Source: Arion vulgaris
Taxonomy: Eukaryota > Mollusca > Gastropoda > Stylommatophora > Arionidae
Assembly: GCA_020796225.1 (NCBI GenBank)
Contig: CM036762.1
Coordinates: 12,946,414 to 13,010,413, forward strand
Direction: 5' to 3'
Length of the DNA: 64,000 bases
Below the pieces are notes generated by a model that was not told the origin of the DNA, ran no database searches, and worked only from the letters and a program-made list of their open reading frames with translations. This document shows, piece after piece, positions 1 to 63,292 of this stretch. The stretch's first letter is position 1. Every line of letters begins with the position of its first letter. The translations under genes were made by a program, and so were the position numbers.

Positions 1-1201
1 GACCTATTGGTGTTGCCTGTCCAGATATTTTCAGCAAGGTCTGCGTTGGAACTGTAGCTATTCTGCCTGGAGCAGAGTTGTATCTTAAAAGAGGGAGACG
101 ACTTGGAGACAACGGTTGGCTACCCATTCTGACAGTCCCTAATCTTTCTGAAGAGAACCCTCGAGGCAAACTTCGACTGTCGTAAAAGGGCTCATCAGTC
201 CTCAGAGTACTTGTATTTGGACAAGTTAAACTAGAATTATCATTATTCATCAACATGCTAGTCTCTGCTACAACTGGTTTACGACCTTTCAAAGTAGTTA
301 TAGGTTGTGGTTTCCGTATTGGAGATCGATCTTTTGACTTTAGTAATGCGTTTGTTTGCTCTAACAGTGTTTGCAATTGCCGTTGTCTTTCTTCTTCGGG
401 TTTCTCTACGTAAGTTGGTCCATTGGCCGTAGACAGGATGCAGCTAGTTTTAACGCCTGAATCAGTGCTTGTTCTTGCAGTAATAAAATTTGTTCCAAAG
501 AAGGAATCATTGTCTGCTGATTTTTTAGCAGGGGGGCTATTTAGTTTCTCAGAGACACTTCGAAGTTTTGAAATACATTTAATTATTTTTCCATCAATTT
601 CTGTTGCTTCTGTTTCCACTCCTACGCTTTTCTTCTCTGCCCTTGTCGTCATGGTGATCTTATCTTCAGATTTTTTCTTTGTTACACTAGATCCAGTGAT
701 GATACGAGCTTGGTTGAGAGTACTAGTAGATTTATCCATCTTAGATACGAAGATGGTCATAGCACCTTTACTAAATAGATGCCTGTTTGATGTCGACGTC
801 TCTTTGTCAAAAGTTGCTTTTGATGATGTGTTAATCCCAATACTGACAAAATGTTTTGAGAGTGAACTTTCGATCATGTTTTCCAAGTTAATTCCTTGAC
901 TTTGAACCATAGATTTTATTATCTCTCCTATACTCTTATTTCCTGTACTATCTGTCATAGAAGGTATGCTACTATCACAACTACCTACTACGTCGTCAAG
1001 TGATATAAGAGTCTGTGTACCAGCTTCTACAGACTGCAGAAAGTCTGTGCTGGTCTCGTCGTCGATCATTATAAGCTCATACTCAGAGTCTGTGTCAGAT
1101 ACAAGATCAAATGCTGCTTCAGGTACGACGATCAGCTCGTCCACATCAATCTCACTCAGCAGACCAATATAAGGCAGCGATTCAGTGGACGTAGCCGCAT
1201 C
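1..1201 (-). CDS. TRIM-family E3 ligase, exon 5 (partial, continues past window edge)
   Basis: The minus strand is open in one frame from an acceptor atctatttccatag|GATGCGG (first base 1201) to the window edge, 400 codons. Phase 0 matches the donor of the preceding exon. It begins DAATSTESLPYIGLL and continues Ser/Thr-rich, with further QT motifs (EAGTQTLISL, VPTQTLLKIS), an acidic patch (DTDSEYELIMIDDE), a Gln-rich helix-like stretch (EEERQRQLQTLLEQTNALL) and basic residues near SKDRSPIRKPQP. I see no recognisable domain in this part. TRIM proteins of this layout often end in NHL, B30.2 or beta-propeller domains, but that part lies outside the window, so the class cannot be assigned. No start codon is expected because it is an internal exon. 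Confidence 0.85.
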
Positions 1202-3418: not shown

Positions 3419-6097
3419 CTGGTAATCCCTGCTGAGTGCACGCTCTAAAAAATCCAGATCAAGTTCGAAGGATGTTGCTGAGGACTTGTCATATAGTTTT
3501 GGAAGTGATGTTTGAATTGCCGTCTCGTGAAAATCGTGGAGACAAGTAACACAAGAGATTGCCATTGTACCAACATCTTGGGTGTACAAAGGCAACGGCA
3601 TGGTAGAATTATCCTTAAACTCCTTACCAGGTACACTAGAGATGTTTTCCAATTTGGATTCGCTACCAGAAACACTGTAACGCCCTGTAGCAGTACAAGA
3701 CTGCAACTCTTCAAAGCATATATGTCCGCAAAATGTGCATTGGCTCTGATTAGATGCAGTCTCTTTGTGTCTCCTTCTTCTTCTGGTTGTGCTCGTTTCT
3801 CTTGTCTGCAATGCTGGCTCCTCGTATTGTGTAGACTGAGTGCCGGCACTAACTGTCTCCCATGGGTTGCAATAGTCAGTCATTAAGCACTCGTCTGTAT
3901 TCTCTAGTTTGTCTGTCTCACATTGTTGATTATCTGTGCTGAATTCCATGCTAGTTTGAGCATCAGCGTGAGTGGTTGTTTCTGTCAGTGTTTCATTATC
4001 ACAAACGACAAGGATCGTTTCAGTATGTGAGTTTCTGTACGCTTTAACATCTGTACAAGTAGCCTGTTCATCTGTCAGTACAACATTAGTAGCCACACCC
4101 ACATCCACAGTGGCCGGAACAGGAGGAGTTACACCAGTACTTATAAGCTGAGGTGTTTGAGTCTCCGTCCATTGATCGACAGTTTTTGCTTCCAATGTAA
4201 CAGTTTCTTTATCCATATACTTGATGACTGGAGTCTCGGTAGATGATGTTACAGTTTTTATTGTGACTGTTTGAGTTGGTTTAGAACATGATGGATTCTT
4301 GATTGGATCAGTTGCCTTGTCGACAGTGATAATTATTTTCTTGATGGGCGATTGTGGTGGTGTTATGAAATCGACAGAACTTTCTAGCATCTCAGCTGCT
4401 ACTGGTATTTCTATATCTTTCTTGCCGTTCTCGATCTCCAGGTCCAAGTCTGGCATTGTTCCTTGTTCTGTTGTTTCAACAATTGTTTGAGACTCGTGGT
4501 CTGATAAGGAAATTGTTTGTGTATTGGTAGAGACTGCGTTAGCATATGGTTTTATTTGAACACCCATATCTCCAGTTTTAACAGTCATGGTTCCTGTAGA
4601 ACGGTCATGCATTGTCGTGGAAACAGTTGCTGTGGCCCTGTCAGACGTGGACACTGCCTCCGTCCATGTATTTTTATTCTCATATGATATAAAGGGCGTA
4701 GACGTGTTTTTATCACTCGTTACAACTGTTTGCGGGGATGTAGCTTTTAATAGATCACTATGGGTGTTGGTACAGGTATAAGAATCATCACATTTAGTGG
4801 CTCGTGTCTGTATGTCTATACTTGTTGAGTCACTACCTACACATACATCACGGTGATGGCATATGTCATGTGATGTTTCAGCGTCTTTCATATTAGACGA
4901 AGCCTTAACTTCAGCAGTAGTAGCCATGTCAGAATCTGCATATCTGACACGTCTTGGTCGATCTCTGAAACGGAAGTTAGTGGTCGCATTCTCTTGTTGG
5001 GCTTTCGCTTTGGTCGCCATCATCTGACTGTATACAATACTATTAACAAAGTCTTGGTCGGTTGACGTTGCTGTGGCTTCTACGTCCAATGCAGTTATCT
5101 CTGTCTGTATCTTGATACTTCTTATCTTGCGACCTGGCGTGTAAGCAAAAGCACTAACTCCAACTGTAGTTGGTAAAAGGTCTGGAGCCGGTCTGCAATC
5201 TCCTCTTACTGCTACTTGATGTGATGCAGTAGCGGAACTCTTTTCTATTTCAGGTTTAACTATATTTATCTTTGCAATCTTTTCGTCAGCATCAACAATT
5301 CTTGAATGTCCACGTTTTGTTGATTGCGGTGAAGACAAACTCCAAAGTTTCTGGTCTCTTGATGCTGTTTGACTGCAACTCTCAGTTTCGTTTTTCAATA
5401 AATTTCCAGCTGTCTCGTTAAATTGAGTTTGGTCGGTCTGGCATTTAAGAGATCGGACATCTGATCTTTCTGTCATTGTTCCTCTAGCCTTTACGTCGCT
5501 AACTTTCGCAAAACTCCTCTCTCTGGTCTCCACATGAATGGTAGAGGTATCTCTTGAAATAAGCGATTTGGTATCTGTCTGCGAGTTAGTGTGAGAGAAA
5601 GATGTCTTCATATCAGAACACATTGATGTGGAAATCTCCTTAGTTCGACATTTCTCAGTCTGTGATGTATCTGTTATAACATCAGGTTCAATCGTCTGTG
5701 ACAGGTACCCATCAATCGAATTATATTCTTCATGTTTCATCATTTTTAAAGGAATAATTTCTTCTAAGCTGTTACTATTTTCTTTCTCTTCATTGTTACT
5801 GTTAATAAAAAGACGACCCAAGACAACATCACCTGGAACAAATCGAATGTCATATTTTGGTTGGGCAGGTACACTTGGCAGAACTGGTTGCAGTAACTGG
5901 TTCATCTTACTTTCAATATCTTTCTTAATCAACAGAAGCTCTACACCCTTATCTTTTAACATGATATCTGTCAAGTTGCATGTGCTCTGTAGTTCGTCCA
6001 GGTTTTCCTGCAAGCATTGCTTCTGATCAACAAAGTCTGTATTTCACCTCCGTACTCATCTCGATTTTTTCAAAAGTTCCTTCTCTTTAACACGAAC
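3419..6097 (-). CDS. TRIM-family E3 ligase, exon 4 (coiled coil plus long S/T-rich QT-motif region)
   Basis: Fourth exon, 2,679 nt (893 codons), phase 0 at both ends. The acceptor is ccatttctaatcacag|GTTCGTG (first base 6097) and the donor is TACCAG|GTGAGG. The first part continues the coiled coil (VRVKEKELLKK, then KDIESKMNQLLQ). The rest is a Ser/Thr/Asp-rich, probably disordered segment with sixteen QT dipeptides, among them KPTQTVT, NTQTI, ETQTP, IQTEI, SQTIVE, IQTSLP, and GVQIK. It also has a basic run TTRRRRRRHK and two cysteine pairs near the end (CTFCGH, CVTCLHDFH). Read literally, a stretch of about 30 nt at 6035-6064 is out of frame with two TGA codons. One base short in the A6 run (6065-6070) and one base extra in the AAA at 6032-6034 would explain this, and the net length is preserved. 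This may be an assembly error rather than a pseudogene. Function of the linker is not known from the sequence. Confidence 0.85.
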
Positions 6098-8484: not shown

Positions 8485-8757
8485 CTTAGAAATGTAACTT
8501 ATAGCCAGGTCTCGTATCTTTTCTTTCACGTCTTTAACAACAGTCTCATATTTATCTATGGCATTAAGTCTTGTGTTGACATCGCCAAGACGATTTTTAC
8601 ACTTTTCCAGCAGAGATTCTAAACTGTTTCTGTTCTTTGACGAGCCATCCTTGAAGGAACAAACTTCGTGCTCCTTGTGTTCTTGAAAAGCACAAACGAC
8701 ACATATACAGGCATCACAAGGTTCACAGTAAAAACGTACATATTCTTCTGGATGTGC
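8485..8757 (-). CDS. TRIM-family E3 ligase, exon 3 (B-box 2 and start of coiled coil)
   Basis: Third exon, residues 165-255, phase 0 at both ends. The acceptor is tttgttctgcag|GCACATCC and the donor is TCTAAG|GTAACA. It completes a B-box 2: C163-x2-H166, C175-x2-C178, C183-x2-C186, H191, H194, with the typical text RFYCEPCDACICVVC. From about residue 205 the sequence becomes heptad-like (SLESLLEKCKNRLGDVNTRL, then KYETVVKDVKEKI), which is the start of the TRIM coiled coil used for antiparallel dimerisation. The intron before it (8758-15858) is about 7.1 kb of transposon-derived DNA. Confidence 0.92.
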
Positions 8758-13180: not shown

Positions 13181-13254
13181 ACCCCCAACTATCACGCTGA
13201 TCCGTGTTACAACTAATCAAAAGAACTATCATATTGATAATTATTGTAATATAC

Positions 13255-13570
13255 AACTATTGCTACTATTGTTACTACTATTACTACAACTATTGCTACT
13301 ATTGTTTCTACTATTACTACAACTATTGCTACTATTGTTACTACTATTACTACAACTATTGCTACTATTGTTACTACTATTACTACAACTATTGCTACTA
13401 TTGTTACTACTATTACTACAACTATTGCTACTATTGTTACTACTATTACTACAACTATTGCTACTATTGTTACTACTATTACTACAACTATTGCTACTAT
13501 TGTTACTACTATTACTACAATTATTGCTACTATTGTTACTACTATTACTACAACTACTACTGATATTACT
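13255..13570. repeat. 33-bp minisatellite of CTA/TTG triplets
   Basis: About nine copies of actattgctactattgtta plus ctactattactaca. It is built of triplets, so several frames stay open, but the products are Leu or Tyr homopolymer-like and are not genes. Confidence 0.92.
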
Positions 13571-15858: not shown

Positions 15859-16048
15859 CTTGCATTGAATGTCTTTTTCTCCTTCCAGGTCAATAAGACT
15901 ATGATGTTGCGTGACTTTAGTGGACATGTGAAGACCGACACATGTTTTACATAATATCTTGCTACAGTCCAGGCACTTGCTGCAAGCGTCCACATTTGTA
16001 GCACGTAACGTAGAGCATATCTCACAAGGAGGGACTTTGGACACAGTC
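15859..16048 (-). CDS. TRIM-family E3 ligase, exon 2 (B-box 1)
   Basis: Second exon of the same gene. The acceptor is a pyrimidine-rich tract ending tctgtcccag at 16049-16050 and the donor is CAAG|GTGAGT at 15859/15858. It encodes residues 101-164. A B-box type 1 zinc finger is seen as C109-x2-C112, C122-x2-C125, C128, C133-x2-C136, H140 and H147/H148. It ends IQCK, so the cysteine at 163 is the first ligand of the second B-box, whose remaining ligands lie in exon 3. The phase is 2 into the exon and 0 out, matching both neighbours. Confidence 0.92.
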
Positions 16049-17324: not shown

Positions 17325-17626
17325 CTTTTTGCAAGGACTTCCGTTAAGTTGGAGACCAGAAAATTGTCTGGAAGTCGTTTCACACCTCCTGTTGGTAAAT
17401 CAGTCTTCTTCCTACACAAGGGGCATGTAACTTGTCTGTTGTATATAGAAATTGTATACCTTGTTGTCCTATTACTTACTTCCTGCTCATACTGTTGCTG
17501 TAGACATGAGCAGCAGAATGTATGTAGACAAGACAACGTCTTCGGATCTCGAAAATTTTCTAAACATATCTTACAACTCAGAAACTGGTTGTTGATTTCT
17601 TGCATTAAACGAGTTCCCGTAGCCAT
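17325..17626 (-). CDS. TRIM-family E3 ubiquitin ligase, exon 1 (RING domain)
   Basis: First coding exon of a minus-strand TRIM-type gene. The ATG at 17626 is the first after an in-frame upstream TAA and has a good context (CAAGATGG). Residues 1-100 hold a complete C3HC4 RING finger: C18, C21, C33, H35, C38, C41, C68, C71, with the family-typical text LSCKICLENF and CPLCRKK. In TRIM proteins the RING recruits E2 enzymes and carries the ubiquitin-ligase activity. The exon ends at a donor AAAAAG|GTGAAT, leaving two bases of a split codon. The first base of the next exon completes it as AGG (Arg101), which supports the junction. No TATA box or other promoter element was recognised upstream. Confidence 0.93.
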
Positions 17627-20394: not shown

Positions 20395-21440
20395 ATGTCC
20401 ATCATACATCAATCAAGTGCCATTCCTGCCGGCGTAGGCGATCATGTCTCTCCACAACTCTCTTTGCTTGGTGCATGTAATCAGTTCTGACGTCGATATT
20501 TTGTCGAACCATGATGTCAAGCCATCCAACATTTTCTCCCTCTCCTTCCCTGAATTTTACCTGTAGTCACCAAATGTTCTAAACCTTCTCTTCGCATTAT
20601 ATGCCCGAAGAACCTTGATTGTCGGATTCTTATTCTTTTGATAAGGTTTCTTTGTGTGCAGACCTGATTTAAAACCTCCACGTTTGTTTTCTTTGCTGTC
20701 CATGGAATTCTCAACATTCTTCTGTAAAACCACATCTCTGTGGCTTCCAATGATCGTATTGATTGTTTGTTCAGTGTCCATGATTCGCTGCCATACATAA
20801 GAATTGGTTCAATATAGCATTGGAGTACTCGTTTTCGCAGTGTCATTGGTAGTGAGTTCACGCATAGTGTGTTCTTCATTTTCATAAAAGCTGCTTTCGT
20901 TTGAGCTATTCTACTCCTAATCTCTATTGTACATCTTCCATCTGGTGTTAAGAATGTTCCTAGATACTTGAATCGATGGACTTGTTTCAGTGTTGTGTTA
21001 TTTATTTTGATATTGCATGTTGGTGTTTCTTGTTTCTTGGAGACAACCATAACCTCTGTTTTCTTTATATTCATGCTTAATCCTTTCTTTTCACTTTCTC
21101 TCACTAGTATGTCTATCAAGTCTTGCAGATCGTGTTCATTTGTAGCCATGAGAATTGTGTCATCAGCGTACCTTAGGTTGTTTATATTTTGTCCACCGAC
21201 TGCTATTCCTGTCTTTTCTTCTATAGATCTCATGATGTTTTCGCTATATAAGTTGAATAGGTCTGGTGAGAGTACGCACCCTTGTCGTACTCCTAACTGT
21301 ATCGCCTGATAGATTCCAATCTTACTCTCTAGTCTAATGGCTGCGGTTTGTTGCCAGTACAAATTCTTGATCAGCCTAAGATCAAGTCCATCATACATAC
21401 ACAAACGAAACAAAACATGGCCTCATGAACGAAGCTTTCA
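20395..21440 (-). mobile_element. RTE/BovB-like LINE, 5'-truncated, reverse transcriptase and C-terminus
   Basis: The long minus-strand frame (20517-21413) encodes the RT palm and thumb. The motif [20 protein letters not shown] corresponds to RT block 4, [11 protein letters not shown] is the catalytic YADD block, [12 protein letters not shown] follows, and [12 protein letters not shown] is the thumb. After these come [22 protein letters not shown] and [14 protein letters not shown]. The last about 35 codons (20410-20520) are in another frame and end GRHGT-like. KAF-type sequence near 21437 marks the 5' break, so the endonuclease and RT fingers are absent. Both aspartates of YADD are intact, but the truncated and frameshifted copy cannot encode an active element. 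The C-terminal text is very close to the plus-strand copy at 57690-58010, implying recent activity of the family. Confidence 0.9.
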
Positions 21441-26162: not shown

Positions 26163-26757
26163 CGGGCAGACACATTTGTGATCAGTTTCCCCCAGCTGAT
26201 ATTGAAGGGTGTTCATACTGATAGTTCTGGTGGCTCGTTTGCTTAACATACTTGTCACTTTATGATCAGTTTCCAGCTGATATTGAAGGTGTTCACTGAT
26301 AGTTCTGTGCGCGTTTGCTTACATACTCGTCACTTTGTGATCAGTTTCTTCCAGCTGATATTGAAGGGTGTTCACACTGATAGTTCTGGTGGCGCGTTTG
26401 TTAACATATCGTCACTTTGTGATCAGTTTCTTCCAGCTGATATTGAAGGGTGTTCATACTGATAGTTCTGGTGGCTCGTTTGCTTAACATACACGTCACT
26501 TTGTGATCAGTTTCCCCCAGCTGATATTGAAGGGTGTTCATACTGATAGTTCTGGTGGCGCGTTTGCTTAACATACTCGTCACTTTGTGATCAGTTTCTT
26601 CCAGCTGATATTGAAGGGTGTTCACACTGATAGTTCTGGTGGCGCGTTTGCTTAACATACTCGTCACTTTGTGATCAGTTTCTTCCAGCTGATATTGAAG
26701 GGTGTTCACACTGATAGTTCTGGTGGCGCGTTTGCTTAACATACTCGTCACTTTGTC
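26163..26757. repeat. About 85-bp minisatellite, 7 copies
   Basis: Unit starts gtgatcagtttcttccagct, passes gatattgaagggtgttcaca and ends catactcgtcacttt. Copies vary by small indels. A minus-strand frame of 28-residue repeats stays open because 84 is divisible by 3. No start context or flanking coding. Confidence 0.92.
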
Positions 26758-43257: not shown

Positions 43258-43637
43258 ATTATAAACATTATCGTAAAGTCTCCAAGTATAAATATTATCG
43301 TAAAGTCTCCAAGTATAAACATTAACGTAAAGTCTCCAAGTATAAACATTAACGTAAAGTCTCCAAGTATAAACATTATCGTAAAGTCTCCAAGTATAAA
43401 CATTATCGTAAAGTCTCCAAGTATAAACATTATCGTAAAGTCTCCAAGTATAAACATTATCGTAAAGTCTCCAAGTATAAACATTATCGTAAAGTCTCCA
43501 AGTATAAACATTATCGTAAAGTCTCCAAGTATAAACATTATCGTAAAGTCTCCAAGTATAAACATTATCGTAAAGTCTCCAAGTATAAACATTATCGTAA
43601 AGTCTCCAAGTATAAACATTATCGTAAAGTCTCCAAA
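43258..43637. repeat. 27-bp minisatellite, about 14 copies
   Basis: Unit tataaacattatcgtaaagt plus ctccaag, nearly homogeneous. As 27 is divisible by 3, three frames stay open (for example FILGDFTIM repeats). These are not genes. Confidence 0.94.
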
Positions 43638-44057
43638 AATAAAAACAACTGTCATTACTGTCTGTAGTACCACTGTTTAGGGCAATGTAGGACAGTGGGG
43701 TGAACCTGAGGAATGTAATGGTCGCATGGCTAATCAAGTCGCCGCGAAGTTGTTCAGGCTAGGATTTTTCATTTATGCCCATAACAGAAAAAAATCCCTG
43801 ACCTTATCGTGAATTGAACATGTATTTGAAAGTATTTGAAAATATATATTATTAATTTCTTATAAATTGAAGTGCTTAAAAAGCCAAAGTTCTAAGTAAT
43901 TGGCAATTTTAAATTGTTCTGGAACCTATAACTGAGCACTAGAAGTGAAGGTGGTTGGGGGTGGCGTTAGAGAATAGTTATATGCGCATAATTAGCAAAC
44001 GAGCATCATCATGCATACTTTGCAATATTCTTGCTGGTTCAGATTACATACAGATCA

Positions 44058-49137: not shown

Positions 49138-50415
49138 TTGTCTATTGTTTATTCCCAGGTGGAAGATGTAGTTGGCTGTTCACTCTTGCCGTTAAGCGTA
49201 AGGATGGGAGCTTTAATTTGCGTTCTAGGGCTAGATGAGTCGCCCTTGTTGTATAGTATCCGTGTTTATGTAGTATGGTCTTGATATTGTCTATCATCTT
49301 TTTTTGGTCTTCCTTAGCTCTAGTACCAGATCTCTTTTTATTGTATGCTGTTATTGGTTGTTGGTTGTATTTCCTTCTCATTAAATGTCCAAACCACTGC
49401 ATTTGTTGTCTTTCGATGTATTCGATGCATGAAGTTATGCCCACTTTGCTTCTGATGTCTTCATTTCGTAGTCTGTCTTTTCTGGTGACTCCACTGCCTT
49501 CCTCAAGCATTTCATTTCACACTGGTGAGCTTTCTGTGATGTGTTGCTGTAAGAGACCAAATTTGTCACTGGTAACAAAGTGTTGGTAGGAAAATACTTT
49601 TATCATCTGTCTTTTCACTTCCATCTTGATCTTTGGGTGTTGTAGTAATGGTGCCAGCTGAGAGAGGTGCAACAGCACACGTCTGAGATTATTGCCATCA
49701 TCGCTTGCGATGGACGGCCATTATTTCTCTATCGAGTTTTCCGTCCTCTGTGAAAATGCTGCCTAAATATTTGAATTCAGAAACTTGCTTTTCTCTGGTG
49801 TTATCTATTTGTATGCTTGCTTGGCTTGGTGTTCTGCTGATTTTCATGGTCTCGGTATTTTGTTTGTTGATTTTCATGTTGTACTTTCTACATGTTATTA
49901 GCAGTGAATTCATGTGATGTTGTAGCTGATCTTCATCTTCATAGATTAAACTTTGGTCGTCCGCAAAAAGCAATTCGTTGATTTCTTTGTTTAATTGGTC
50001 GTCGTGATCGTTGTCTATGTCAATAAGGTCTTTTTCGCACTGTGCCTCTTTCACTATTCTGTCGATATATATGTTGAACAGAAGAGGTGAGAGCACACAA
50101 CCCTGTCTTACTCCTGATTTTGTTTCGAATGAGTCTGTCATTCCGTCTGTTGTTCTTACCACACTGTGGCTATTTGTGTATATTGCTCTGATATTGTCTA
50201 GCAGTTGTCCCTTGATTCCATAGTTTTCTAGTGTTTCCCATAGAATACTTCTATCTATTCTGTCGAATGCCTTTTTTTGATCGATGAATAATAAGTGTAG
50301 CTCTTTATTATATTCTATTGATTTTTCACTCAGTTGTCTCAGAATGAATAGAGCGTCTGTGCATCCCACTCCTCTTGTAAATCCAAACTGAGAGTGGCTT
50401 ATTTGTGGGTCAGCG
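49138..50415 (-). mobile_element. LINE insertion (FADD-motif reverse transcriptase), 5'-truncated, with target-site duplication
   Basis: Flanked by the 12-bp duplication attcattttaaa (49126-49137 and 50416-50427). The minus frame 49698-50369 encodes RT: LFIDQKKAFDRIDRSILWET (block with the first catalytic Asp), [38 protein letters not shown] (FADD catalytic block), KYNMKINKQNTETMKIS, FKYLGSIFTEDGKLDREI. After a frameshift near 49690-49510 the C-terminus follows in 49142-49510: RKDRLRNEDIRSKVGITSCI, MQWFGHLMRRKYNQQPITAY, and a stop about 5 nt from the element end. The endonuclease is missing, so the copy is dead on arrival. The very short 3' UTR resembles RTE-type elements, but the clade is uncertain. 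Confidence 0.9.
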
Positions 50416-50650
50416 ATTCATTTTAAAATCAACACAAAATGCTAAATCGAAGTTATATTGTCCAACAAGTTAAGTTTAACAATAAGGAATATCAATATTA
50501 TAAATATTTTTCACCAATTAAAAACCATAGACTCACAGAATTGAGTAAAATTGCAAAAAAAGCTTGCAGTGCTCTTTCAAACATATGTACATTTCAGCCT
50601 CCTTCTCTGATCTCGGTCAGGATTTCCGTAAATTGTCTGGCCTAATTATC
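50416..50650. repeat. Dispersed repeat H, right half
   Basis: aacacaaaatgctaaatcga, agttatattgtccaacaagt, agactcacagaattgagtaa, continuing the copy begun at 48995. Matches 15430-15600. Confidence 0.75.
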
Positions 50651-53447: not shown

Positions 53448-55965
53448 GAGCCCACAGGAGACTCCACAGAGACTCCACGAGATTCTCCAGAACAAGAGCC
53501 ACAGACATGAGATCACAGAACTCCACATGAATTCATCAGAGACTCCCCAGAGATCTACAGAGACTCTCAGACTCTTCAGGATTCTCCACAGGACCCTCAG
53601 AGACTCACAGAGACCACAGAGACTCCCAGAGACCCTGTTCCCAAAGAAGGACTCCACAGAACTCCCACAGGCCACCAGATCCCAGAGACTCCAGAGATCC
53701 TACAGAACTCCACAGAGACTACACAGAACTTTCAGAGACCCAAGTGACTCCAGAGACTTCCACAGGACTCAACAGAGACCCAGACAGTACTACAGAACCC
53801 CAAGAGACTCTCATGACTCCCACAGGACTCACGAGACCCCCAGAGATCCCCAAGGCCACAGAGACTCCCAGAGAGATTCCCAAGAACCCCACAGAGACTC
53901 CCAGAGACCCCAAGAGATCCCAAAGAGACTCACAGAGATCCCACAGAAGCCCACAGGACCACAGAGATCACAGGACTCTCACGGATTCCAAGAGCCACAG
54001 ACTCACAGAGACCCCACAGGATTCCACAGAGACTCAAGAGATTCCACTAGCCACAGAGACTCCCACAGAGACTCCCACAGAGACTCCACAGAGATTCCCA
54101 CAGAGACCCCCACAGAGACTCCAGGCACAGAGACTCCCACAGAGACTCCAATTCCACAGAGACCCCACAGACACAAACTCCCACAGAGACCCACACAGAG
54201 ACTCCCACAGAGACCTCCACAGAGACTCCCACAGAGACTCCCACAGAGACTCCACAGAGACTTTCACAGAGACCCAGAGAGTGACTCCAGAGACTCCCAC
54301 AGAGACTCCAACAGAGACCCAGACAGTGACCCCCACAGAGACCCCACAGAGACTCCACATAGACCCCACAGAGACTCCCACAGAGACCCCACAGAGACCC
54401 CACAGAGACCCCACAGAGACTCCCACAGAGATTCCCCAGAGACCCCCACAGAGACTCCACAGAGACCCCACAGAGATTCCCAAGAGACTCCCACAGAGAT
54501 TCCCACAGAGACCCCACAGAGACTCCCACAGAGACTCCCACAGAGACTCCCACAGAGATTCCCAGAGACCCACGAGACTCCCACAGAGACCCCCGCAGAG
54601 ACTCCCACAGAGACTCCCACAGAGATTCCCACAGAGACCCCACAGAGACCACAGAGACTCCCAGAACTCCAGAGACTCCCACAGACCCACAGAGACTCAC
54701 ACCACAGAGACCCAGGTGACTCACAAGCTAGAGACTCCAACAGACCAGACAGTGACCCCCACAGAGACTCCCACAGACCAGACAGGACCCCCACATAGAC
54801 CCCACAGAGACTCCCACAGAGACTCCACAGAGACCCCACAGAGACCCCCACAGAGACCCAGACAGTGACCCCACAGAGACTCACACAGAGACCCCACAGA
54901 GACCCCACAGAGACCCAGACAGTGACCCCCACAGAGACTCCCACAGAGACTCCCACAGAGACCCAGACATTGACCCCCACAGAGACTCCCACAGAGACTC
55001 CCACAGAGACCCAGACAGTGACCCCACAGAGACCAGACAGTACCCCACAGAGACTCCCACAGAGACCCCCACAGAGACCCCCACAGAGACCCCCACAGAG
55101 ACTCCCACAGAGACCCCAACAGAGACCCCACAGAGACCCCACAGAGACCCAACAGTGACCCACAGAGACCTCCACAGAGATCCTACAGAGACTCCCACAG
55201 AGATTCCCACAGAGACCCCACAGAGACTCCACAGAGACTCCCACAGAGACTCCACAGAGATTCCCACAGAGACCCCCACAGAGACTCCACAGAGACTCCA
55301 CAGAGATTCCCACAGAGACCCCCACAGAGACTCACACAGAGACTCACACAGATACTCCCACAGAGACTCCACAGAGACTCCACAGAGACTCCACAGAGAC
55401 TCCACAGACTCCCACAGAGACTCCACAAGACTTCACAGAGACCCAGAGAGTGCTCCACAGAGACTCCCACAGAGACTCCACAGAGACCCAGACAGTGACC
55501 CCACAGAGACCCACAGACCCAGACAGTGACCCCACATAGACCCCACAGAGACTCCCACAGAGACTCCCACAGAGACCCCACAGAGACCCCACAGAGCCCA
55601 GACAGTGACCCACAGAGACTCCACAGAGACCCACAGAGCCAGACAGTGACCCCACAGAGACCACAGGACTCCCACAGAACCAGACATTGCCCACAGAGAC
55701 TCCACAGAGACTCCACAGAGACCAGACAGTGACCCCACAGAGACCCAGACAGTGACCCCACAGAGACCCCACAGAGACCCCACAGAGACCCACAGAGACC
55801 CCACAGAGCTCCACAGAGACCCCAACAGAGACCCCACAGAGACCCAAGAGACCAAACAGTGACCCACAGAGACCTACATAGAATCCTACAGAGACTCCCA
55901 CAGAGACCCACGGAGACTCCCACAGACACCACAGAGACCCCACAGAGACCTACAGATACAAGTAG
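53448..55965. repeat. 2.5-kb minisatellite of 11-13 bp (CACAGAGACTCC)-type units
   Basis: About 200 units, mainly cccacagagact, ccacagagaccc and ccacagagattc. A higher-order variant cagacagtgacccccacaga recurs roughly every 60-130 bp in 54.3-55.8 kb. Units of different length interleave, so no single frame is maintained, and long ORFs exist in several frames on both strands simply because the units lack stop codons. There is no start context, splice site or flanking exon. Confidence 0.95.
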
Positions 55966-56042
55966 ACCTAGAAGACAGAAAAAAATTAACAGAAGACAAC
56001 CATTGTCAAGACATTCTTTTCAAGAAAACAAAAATAACAGTG

Positions 56043-62990: not shown

Positions 62991-63005
62991 AAAACAGGAT
63001 TAGAG

Positions 63006-63292
63006 AAAAAAAGACTTTGACTCTTACTAGTGTTTCAGTTTAGATGTTGGTTTCTATATTACCTGATACTCACTTGAAAAAAAGACTTTGACTCTTACTA
63101 GTGTTTCAGTTTAGATGTTGGTTTCTATATTACCTGATACTCACTTGAAAAAAAGACTTTGACTCTTACTAGTGTTTCAGTTTAGATGTTGGTTTCTATA
63201 TTACCTGATACTCACTTGAAAAAAAGACTTTGACTCTTACTAGTGTTTCAGTTTAGATGTTGGTTTCTATATTACCTGATACTCACTTAAAA
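63006..63292. repeat. 71-bp minisatellite, 4 near-identical copies
   Basis: Unit aaaaaaagactttgactctt, actagtgtttcagtttagat, gttggtttctatattacctg, atactcacttg. Almost no divergence between copies. Confidence 0.93.

What the first reader, a model, noticed from the sequence alone, without database searches (positions are those of the whole stretch)
3419..6097. TRIM E3 ligase with a giant linker rich in QT motifs: candidate multivalent dynein light chain (LC8) hub
Between the coiled coil and the unseen C-terminus this TRIM protein has about 1,200 residues of Ser/Thr-rich, apparently disordered sequence. It has sixteen QT dipeptides in exon 4 and at least two more in exon 5. Several fit known LC8 (DYNLL) anchors: KPTQT matches KxTQT, NTQT/ETQT/GTQT/PTQT match the TQT core, and GVQIK resembles the GIQVD class. 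Many are also SQ/TQ sites, as in the SQ/TQ-cluster protein ASCIZ/ATMIN, which binds LC8 multivalently. A RING/B-box dimer with an LC8-binding array would be an unusual architecture. The function is inference; the motif density is seen directly.
Basis: partly seen in the sequence, partly recalled or inferred. Interest (0 to 1): 0.8.

Follow-up and report, generated by a model that had tools for sequence, protein, structure and literature searches.

The report
TRIM protein with 12-residue motif ladder
A snail ubiquitin-ligase-type protein carries a very long floppy stretch in which a short motif, resembling the one that grips the dynein light chain LC8, returns every 12 residues, an arrangement kept from snails to clams, octopus, a brachiopod and a worm.

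Summary
The finding is real but mis-described. The gene (minus strand: RING, B-boxes, a long helix, then a disordered linker of about 1,200 residues, open at the window edge) belongs to a family found in molluscs, a brachiopod and an annelid; several members are filed as mucins or adhesins. QT is enriched in this species, but only 6 of 19 are kept in at least 30 of 35 relatives; KPTQT, NTQT and ETQT are kept in none. SQ/TQ is not enriched. What is unusual is a degenerate motif, [DESN]-[KRV]-[GAES]-[TVI]-x-T-[DEP], about 35 times in the window protein, in a 12-residue register (16 linkers: 155 motif pairs at lag 12, 15 at 11, 3 at 13). It matches the published LC8 consensus except at the central Gln, which is 9% here in molluscs and 1% in the nine most divergent members. 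Canonical QT sites cluster just after the coiled-coil part. Ser is nearly absent at both anchor Thr positions, against phosphosites; AlphaFold predicts no fold. A solved LC8 complex (worm SAO-1) has two sites exactly 12 residues apart, one without Gln. Best reading: LC8-type ladder, confidence 0.45; an unknown partner is nearly as likely.

The parts
17325..17626 (-). exon 1: start codon and RING finger
   Evidence: Pfam zf-C3HC4 E 6.8e-9 on the joined exons 1-3; splice donor by reading
15859..16048 (-). exon 2: first B-box-like Cys/His cluster
   Evidence: splice sites and Cys/His pattern; not matched by Pfam, called by eye
8485..8757 (-). exon 3: second B-box and start of the coiled-coil part
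   Evidence: Pfam zf-B_box E 3.9e-8; splice sites
3419..6097 (-). exon 4: end of the coiled-coil part and most of the disordered linker with the motif ladder
   Evidence: AlphaFold mean pLDDT 39.8, no strands
1..1201 (-). exon 5: rest of the linker; runs off the window, C-terminus not seen
   Evidence: open frame of 400 aa; acceptor; aligned by relatives
6028..6070 (-). two compensating frame breaks with two in-frame TGA in the coiled-coil end (assembly error or allele)
   Evidence: the relative P0001 reads through here
5654..5674 (-). coil-proximal canonical-like site TDTSQTE (aa 397-403)
   Evidence: QT in 33 of 35 relatives
5099..5122 (-). canonical-like site RSIKIQTE (aa 581-588); by eye 6 of the 9 divergent members have a [KR][KR][VIT]QT[DE] site
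   Evidence: QT in 33 of 35 relatives; sites of the divergent members listed
4799..4822 (-). site SIDIQTRA (aa 681-688)
   Evidence: QT in 30 of 35 relatives
4577..4714 (-). run of four motifs at exact 12-residue spacing (aa 717-762)
   Evidence: spacing kept in 32/32, 35/35 and 34/35 relatives
3932..4249 (-). core run of nine motifs, spacing 12 with one step of 11 (aa 872-977); no central residue is Gln in the window
   Evidence: exact spacing in 35/35 relatives for six of its seven 12-residue steps and 30/35 for the first; no fold in AlphaFold
3548..3613 (-). two motifs 12 apart (DNSTMP, DVGTMA; aa 1084-1105)
   Evidence: spacing kept in 31 of 35
3506..3526 (-). site ETAIQTS (aa 1113-1119)
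   Evidence: QT in 35 of 35 relatives
1184..1201 (-). motif DAATST at the start of exon 5
   Evidence: 36 of 36 keep T.T
998..1063 (-). two motifs 12 apart, DDETST and EAGTQT (aa 1195-1216)
   Evidence: spacing kept in 32 of 35; QT of EAGTQT kept in 34 of 35
710..844 (-). run of four motifs (SIGINT, DKETST, SKGAMT, DKSTST; aa 1268-1312)
   Evidence: spacing kept in 35/35, 35/35 and 32/35
602..664 (-). two motifs (DKITMT, SVGVET; aa 1328-1348)
   Evidence: spacing kept in 35/35

Best explanation
A TRIM E3-type protein, presumably dimeric, whose disordered linker is a long array of short beta-strand motifs of the LC8 (DYNLL) client type. A few canonical QT sites just after the coiled-coil part, plus a few kept further on, would bind LC8 dimers strongly. 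The following 12-residue-register motifs, mostly without the Gln, would be occupied weakly by further LC8 dimers through avidity, stapling the two linkers of the dimer in register into a beads-on-a-string ladder that extends and rigidifies the linker. Shown here: architecture, predicted disorder, register, conservation, match to published LC8 preferences. Inferred: LC8 binding itself, dimerisation, and any dynein or microtubule role.
For: 12-residue register: 155 motif pairs at lag 12 against 15 and 3 at lags 11 and 13; 295 of 561 successive gaps are exactly 12. Motif make-up follows the published natural LC8 consensus [D/S]-4 K-3 x-2 [T/V/I]-1 Q0 [T/V]+1 [D/E]+2 (PMC3078936) at every constrained position but 0, with V the commonest residue at -5 (17%) and G/A at -2 as in the phage-selected set. 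Gly at -2 goes with V/I at -1 (70 of 156) more than other residues do (83 of 464), as in the LC8 GIQVD class. Flank log-odds lean to published binders (repeats 0.84, binders 2.24, nonbinders -0.03, shuffled -0.69; without position -4: 0.72, 2.66, -0.68, -0.73). LC8 partners without the Gln are known: myosin 5a TMT, Pak1 TSP, GRINL1 IGV, fly ASCIZ TMT, worm SAO-1 VAT. SAO-1 residues 187-VAT-189 and 199-CQT-201 hold two DLC-1 dimers in a crystal, exactly 12 residues apart. Coil-proximal [TVISC]QT[DEPST]: 43 of 52 members, 64 sites against 4.8 in shuffles. Ser nearly absent at -1 (0.6%) and +1 (1.5%) against 11.5% background, as expected for buried Thr. Array unstructured on its own by prediction.
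Against: Gln at position 0 is only 58 of 620 motifs (9.4%) in 18 mollusc proteins and 5 of 355 (1.4%, a third of background) in the nine most divergent members. The core run has conserved central E (26/36 and 29/36), L (33/36) and Y/H/C with no LC8 precedent that I found, and an invariant Trp at -2 in one slot (36/36), where tight LC8 binders have no bulky aromatic. Motifs with unprecedented central residues are enriched as well as those with precedents (window 6 against 1.5, and 5 against 0.6; annelid 13 against 2.5, and 3 against 0.8). The strict natural consensus has 0 matches in the window linker and in 9 of the 10 linkers tested, and loose canonical sites are not enriched in the annelid, octopus and P0061. 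Nonbinder peptides also fit the true register best, though less well (0.30 against 0.45; 0.26 with two more nonbinders), and fit column +2 better than binders do (0.61 or 0.46 against 0.22). In phage selection the two motif classes mix freely and Asp at -4 is absent, so two of the resemblances are not required by LC8 binding. The spread of the log-odds is large (sd about 3.6). No binding experiment or co-fold was possible.
Confidence: 0.45

Rival explanations
1. The 12-residue array is a docking ladder for a different, unknown strand-binding partner; LC8 at most uses the few conserved canonical QT sites.
For: Position 0 is mostly S/G/N/E/A/T rather than Gln in the nine most divergent members and is slot-specific and conserved in molluscs (W 30/36, L 33/36, N 36/36, S 35/36). 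The register and the D, T and T positions are common to both sets while Gln is not.
Against: The agreement with LC8 preferences at the other positions and the 12-residue SAO-1 precedent would then be coincidence. No other partner with this preference could be named.
Confidence: 0.33
2. The repeats form a beta-solenoid or stacked beta fold with 12 residues per turn, as in the TxT insect antifreeze protein (recalled).
For: Exact 12-residue period with a T.T pair per repeat.
Against: AlphaFold gives no strand and low confidence for exon 4 (mean pLDDT 39.8) and for the core run alone with 58 sequences (52.1). Runs are short and interrupted. The alignments are shallow, so this is not decisive.
Confidence: 0.07
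3. The Thr-rich motifs are phosphorylation or glycosylation sites, and the linker is a regulatory or mucin-like spacer (several public names say mucin).
For: Thr and Ser rich; D or E follows many motifs. Names in public records.
Against: At both Thr positions Ser is almost never used (0.6% and 1.5% against 11.5%) while V, I, M, P and A are. The exact register is not needed for this. The protein starts with RING and B-box; no signal-peptide predictor was run.
Confidence: 0.1
4. The register is only the residue of an old tandem duplication without function.
For: A 12-residue unit is most simply made by duplication; copy number differs between members (27-73 motif hits).
Against: No such tandem repeat is left at DNA level in exons 4 and 5. 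Motif pairs 12 apart in the window keep exactly 12 in 93% of pair-by-relative cases, intervals outside runs in 67%, and the two Thr columns are the best kept (mean identity 0.67 and 0.70, non-slot linker 0.25).
Confidence: 0.05

Closest known systems
Multivalent LC8 clients: ASCIZ/ATMIN, Nup159, Chica, 53BP1
   Same: disordered chain with several strand motifs; a TMT-type weak site occurs in fly ASCIZ (PMC10046861, PMC5963919, passages read)
   Different: fly ASCIZ sites start at 251, 274, 285, 323, 340, 354 and 374, not periodic; as many as 11 sites are reported for ASCIZ (PMC12017986, passages); ASCIZ sites are mostly TQT; ASCIZ has zinc fingers, not a RING/B-box part
C. elegans SAO-1 bound to DLC-1
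   Same: two LC8-type sites exactly 12 residues apart, one with the non-Gln anchor VAT (PMC9630320, passages read)
   Different: two sites only; GYF-domain protein, not a TRIM
TRIM56-like RING/B-box proteins
   Same: N-terminal RING and B-box, then a predicted long helix; some relatives are named TRIM56
   Different: no B30.2 or NHL domain in the four long relatives scanned; instead the ladder and short conserved C-terminal motifs
TRIM69 (microtubule-linked TRIM)
   Same: a TRIM connected with microtubules; one study reports that it induced co-localisation of MST2 with DYNLL1 (PMC10602929, passages read)
   Different: no LC8 motif array in the passages read; orthology not tested

Membership tests
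TRIM (RING, B-box, coiled coil) | RING finger | tested here: met
   Pfam zf-C3HC4 35.9 bits, cut-off 21
TRIM (RING, B-box, coiled coil) | B-box | tested here: met
   Pfam zf-B_box 35.4 bits, cut-off 24.1; the first B-box only by eye
TRIM (RING, B-box, coiled coil) | coiled coil after the B-box | tested here: inconclusive
   long helix at the start of exon 4 (model residues 8-51, block pLDDT 59-76); no coiled-coil predictor was run
TRIM (RING, B-box, coiled coil) | ubiquitin ligase activity | not testable with these tools
   needs an assay
LC8 multivalent client | motifs in a disordered region | tested here: met
   by prediction only:
LC8 multivalent client | nearby dimerising part | not tested
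   canonical sites lie next to the presumed coiled coil, but dimerisation was not tested
LC8 multivalent client | canonical anchor with Gln at position 0 | tested here: inconclusive
   six QT sites kept in at least 30 of 35 relatives and coil-proximal sites in 43 of 52; not met for about 90% of the array
LC8 multivalent client | flank preferences (-4 D/S, -3 K/R/V, -2 small, +2 D/E/P) | tested here: met
   column +2 alone fits nonbinders better
LC8 multivalent client | direct binding to LC8 | not testable with these tools
   no complex prediction or binding data
SQ/TQ cluster protein (ASCIZ-like) | excess of SQ/TQ over composition | tested here: not met
   16 against 12.2 expected, 274 of 2000 shuffles reach it
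12-residue TxT beta-solenoid | folded beta structure | tested here: inconclusive
   no strand predicted, but low confidence and shallow alignments

The most novel reading that the evidence does not exclude
The linker is a strictly periodic 12-residue LC8 ladder, about 30 to 70 strand motifs per chain, far beyond the 11 sites reported for ASCIZ. It would be built mostly from Gln-less motifs that bind only by avidity once LC8 has zipped the chains together at the coil-proximal QT sites: a length-set rod on a ubiquitin ligase, kept from brachiopods and annelids to snails.
Probability: 0.25. Interest if true: 0.82.

Novelty: new variant of a known kind. Interest (0 to 1): 0.6.

Why it matters
Disordered linkers are usually thought free to drift in length, yet here an exact 12-residue register is kept while most other residues change. 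If LC8 is the partner, it suggests that Gln-less motifs can form ladders and that spacing, not the anchor, is the conserved code. If another protein is the partner, the motif is the bait to find it. It also corrects a family of TRIM proteins of which several are now filed as mucins and adhesins.

Tried and rejected
SQ/TQ cluster idea: rejected by shuffles. Phosphosite or glycosite array: judged unlikely mainly because Ser is lacking at both Thr positions. Beta-solenoid: no support from two AlphaFold runs; no fold search was run because the models are of low confidence. PDB sequence search with a 35-residue piece (three repeats): no hit up to E 10. Rfam over the window at gathering scores: nothing. 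ARAGORN on the window: no tRNA.

Literature searches (listed of found): TRIM with LC8/DYNLL1 (12 of 73), TRIM with mollusc and 12-residue repeats (2 of 2), TRIM and Lophotrochozoa (10 of 85), LC8 with E3 and TQT (4 of 4), LC8 with mollusc terms (8 of 1,205), TRIM with threonine-rich, tandem repeats or SxIP (6 of 85). In the listed titles and abstract starts I saw no description of this family or of a TRIM LC8 array; most hits were not opened. Ankyrin-B 12-residue repeats (recalled lead): none of the 5 papers listed holds that phrase.

Limits of the scoring. The LC8 set is small: 18 of 19 binder rows (one duplicate left out) and 26 of 43 nonbinder rows of tables 1 and 2 of PMC6607443; the 4 weak binders were left out. 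The 17 nonbinder rows left out include two with SQT or TQT anchors (UBN2, DDX1); with these added the result holds. LC8Pred itself was not available. The motif model was trained on 16 of 24 linkers (close relatives left out) and counted in the same ones; the shuffle control (49 hits against 577) and the model-free lag count guard against that. In one search exon 5 was read one base off; from then on it starts at 1201, and no exon 5 number here comes.
Full report
What is there. On the minus strand a TRIM-type gene runs from 17626 to beyond the window start: exon 1 17626-17325 (RING), exon 2 16048-15859 (first B-box-like Cys/His cluster, by eye), exon 3 8757-8485 (second B-box), exon 4 6097-3419, exon 5 1201 to the window edge. 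The junctions seen are AG|exon|GT and in phase. In exon 4 two compensating frame breaks with two in-frame stops lie at about 6070-6028, inside a segment that the relative P0001 reads through. As the remaining 875 residues of exon 4 and the 400 of exon 5 are open, I take this as an assembly error or allele, not gene death.

Family. A protein search with the linker found 31 proteins. A second with the chiton protein and a third with an alignment brought the set to 68, of which the last two (P0067, P0068) are not family members. Organism names in the records include gastropods, bivalves, a chiton, an octopus, the brachiopod Lingula and the annelid Paralvinella (classes from my own knowledge; many records are unnamed). 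After P0066 (E 1.4e-157) the next hit is a coral TRIM2-like protein at 7.5e-25 with no array, so the family looks lophotrochozoan as far as these searches show. The closest is the land snail Bradybaena similaris (59% over the query). Public names include mucin-5AC, mucin-4, mucin-17, serine-rich adhesin and TRIM56. In four long relatives Pfam finds only RING and B-box models above cut-off; two sub-threshold hits lie over the coiled-coil part.

The observation. Sixteen QT in exon 4 is right. QT and TQT exceed composition in the window linker (19 against 6.6; 4 against 0.86, 22 of 2000), SQ/TQ does not. Conservation of the 19 QT up to aa 1444 among 35 long relatives: at least 30 of 35 for six (aa 401, 586, 685, 969, 1117, 1211), 17-21 for three, 9 for one, 0-1 for nine; KPTQT, NTQT and ETQT are among the nine. 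QTs are on average kept more than other xT pairs (0.40 against 0.23).

The main feature. D..T.T is 13 against 1.4 in shuffles. A motif model seeded on D..T.T converges on [DESN][KVRA][GEAS][TVI]x[T][DEP], 577 instances in 16 linkers against 49 in shuffles, 35 in the window protein. Successive instances are most often 12 apart: 295 of 561 gaps; and without any model 155 motif pairs at lag 12 against 15 at 11 and 3 at 13, with peaks at 24, 36, 48 and 60. Slots 12 apart in the window keep exactly 12 in 93% of pair-by-relative cases, against 67% for 12-residue intervals outside runs (one pair, aa 1023-1035, keeps it in only 5 of 30). Mean identity to the window is 0.67 and 0.70 at the two Thr columns, 0.48 at the central residue, 0.25 in non-slot linker. 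No tandem repeat of this kind remains in the DNA of exons 4 and 5. The nine most divergent members (two named: Lingula and Paralvinella) have 27-73 instances against 4-7 in shuffles, with 12 the commonest gap in each.

What the motif says. In 620 instances from 18 mollusc proteins (position 0 not used for detection) -1 is T 73, V 19, I 6%; +1 is T 78, P 8, A 4, M 4%; Ser is 0.6% and 1.5% there against 11.5% background; -4 is D 49, E 18, S 12%; -3 K 25, V 13, S 11, A 10, R 10%; -2 G 25, E 19, A 16, S 14%; +2 D 18, E 16, P 12%. This resembles the published natural LC8 consensus (abstract and sections 3, 6 and 11 part 1 of PMC3078936 read), with small residues at -2, K/R at -3 and, as in the phage-selected set, Val at -5. 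Gly at -2 is coupled to V/I at -1 as in the GIQVD class, although in phage selection the two classes mix freely. The exception is position 0: S 19.5, M 11.6, E 10.5, N 9.5, Q 9.4% in molluscs, and S 22, G 13, N 9, Q 1.4% in the divergent members. Q, M, S, A and G have LC8 precedents (myosin 5a, Pak1, GRINL1; ASCIZ; SAO-1); E, N, L, W, T and C have none in what I read. In molluscs the central residue is slot-specific and conserved, and one core slot has an invariant Trp at -2 (36 of 36), which tight LC8 binders avoid.

LC8 tests. Flank log-odds trained on 18 binders and 26 nonbinders (PMC6607443 tables 1 and 2; section 5 part 1 and sections 8, 9 and 23 read): repeats 0.84, binders 2.24, nonbinders -0.03, shuffled -0.69, spread about 3.6. 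With two more nonbinders and without position -4, which was part of the seed: 0.72, 2.66, -0.68, -0.73. Register test on non-anchor columns: binders 0.45 at the true register against at most 0.16 elsewhere; nonbinders 0.30 against 0.11, or 0.26 against 0.16 with two more; position -3 favours binders (0.71 against 0.03 or 0.06), +2 favours nonbinders (0.22 against 0.61 or 0.46). Pattern counts in the window linker: loose canonical 7 against 1.5; strict natural consensus 0; precedented anchors (Q, M, S, A, G) 5 against 0.6; unprecedented 6 against 1.5. In ten linkers tested the strict consensus occurs once (Pecten), and loose canonical sites are not enriched in the annelid, octopus and P0061. 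So the array is LC8-like in its frame but not selected for LC8-known central residues.

Where canonical sites sit. In the first 110 residues after the conserved PGxVxLG element that follows the coiled-coil part, [TVISC]QT[DEPST] occurs 64 times in 52 of 53 non-redundant members (P0054 could not be placed), in 43 of the 52, against 4.8 in 200 shuffles with a maximum of 11; per 110 residues 1.23 there against 0.36 in the rest. P0060, for example, has DVDVQTE, EIHTQTE and RRKVQTD there. LC8 clients often have motifs beside a coiled coil (PMC3078936).

Spacing. Worm SAO-1 residues 187-189 VAT and 199-201 CQT each hold a DLC-1 dimer in one crystal (PMC9630320, passages): exactly 12 apart. Known two-site structures have 3-9 residues between motifs (PMC12797016, passages), and fly ASCIZ sites lie 11 to 38 apart without a period (PMC5963919, passages).

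Structure. AlphaFold with 25 sequences: a helix at the start of exon 4, array pLDDT about 28-49, no strand. Core run with 58 sequences: mean 52.1, no secondary structure. The alignments are shallow, but nothing suggests a solenoid.

Mechanism proposed. TRIM coiled coils are antiparallel dimers (recalled), so two linkers would leave the same rod. LC8 at the coil-proximal QT sites would pair them; the 12-residue register would let further LC8 dimers stack on weak motifs. A conserved SxIP-type motif (SPSKIP and variants, 23 of 35 long relatives) lies in the C-terminus outside the window and is a hint, no more, of a microtubule plus-end link (SxIP as EB1 ligand is recalled). LC8 binding, stacking and any cytoskeletal role are inference.

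Verdict.

Noticed in passing
window 6028-6070: Two compensating frame breaks with two in-frame stops inside the conserved coiled-coil end of exon 4, with an open frame after them: assembly error or allele.
   Followed up: partly
P0001, P0014, P0016, P0031 and others (C-terminus, outside the window): Conserved short motifs after the linker: SPSKIP (SxIP type, 23 of 35 long relatives), GFMQRLLSKKKK and RPFVYVRQRIFSIQQDN.
   Followed up: partly
P0003, P0008, P0011, P0014, P0037, P0041: Public records name these proteins mucin-5AC, mucin-4-like, serine-rich adhesin for platelets or mucin-17-like although their domain columns begin with RING and B-box (P0041 scanned).
   Followed up: partly
window 53452-55950: 2.5 kb minisatellite of about 11-12 bp units (CCACAGAGACC), GC 57% in 54001-56000, that gives long spurious open frames on both strands.
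   Followed up: no
window 20520-21422 and 49701-50417, minus strand: Reverse-transcriptase fragments (Pfam RVT_1, E 4.4e-19 and 2.2e-30), probably retrotransposon remains.
   Followed up: no
window about 2280-2400: Sequence that looks tRNA-derived by eye (boxes A and B like a SINE) between exons 4 and 5; ARAGORN reports no tRNA.
   Followed up: partly
window 13252-13556, 26175-26756, 43260-43643, 63005-63292: Further tandem arrays with 33, 84, 27 and 71 bp units, 92-99% matches.
   Followed up: no
window exon 4, aa 602-627: AlphaFold gives a lone helix of fair confidence (model residues 329-354, block pLDDT 51-80) inside the disordered linker, just after the conserved IQTE site.
   Followed up: no
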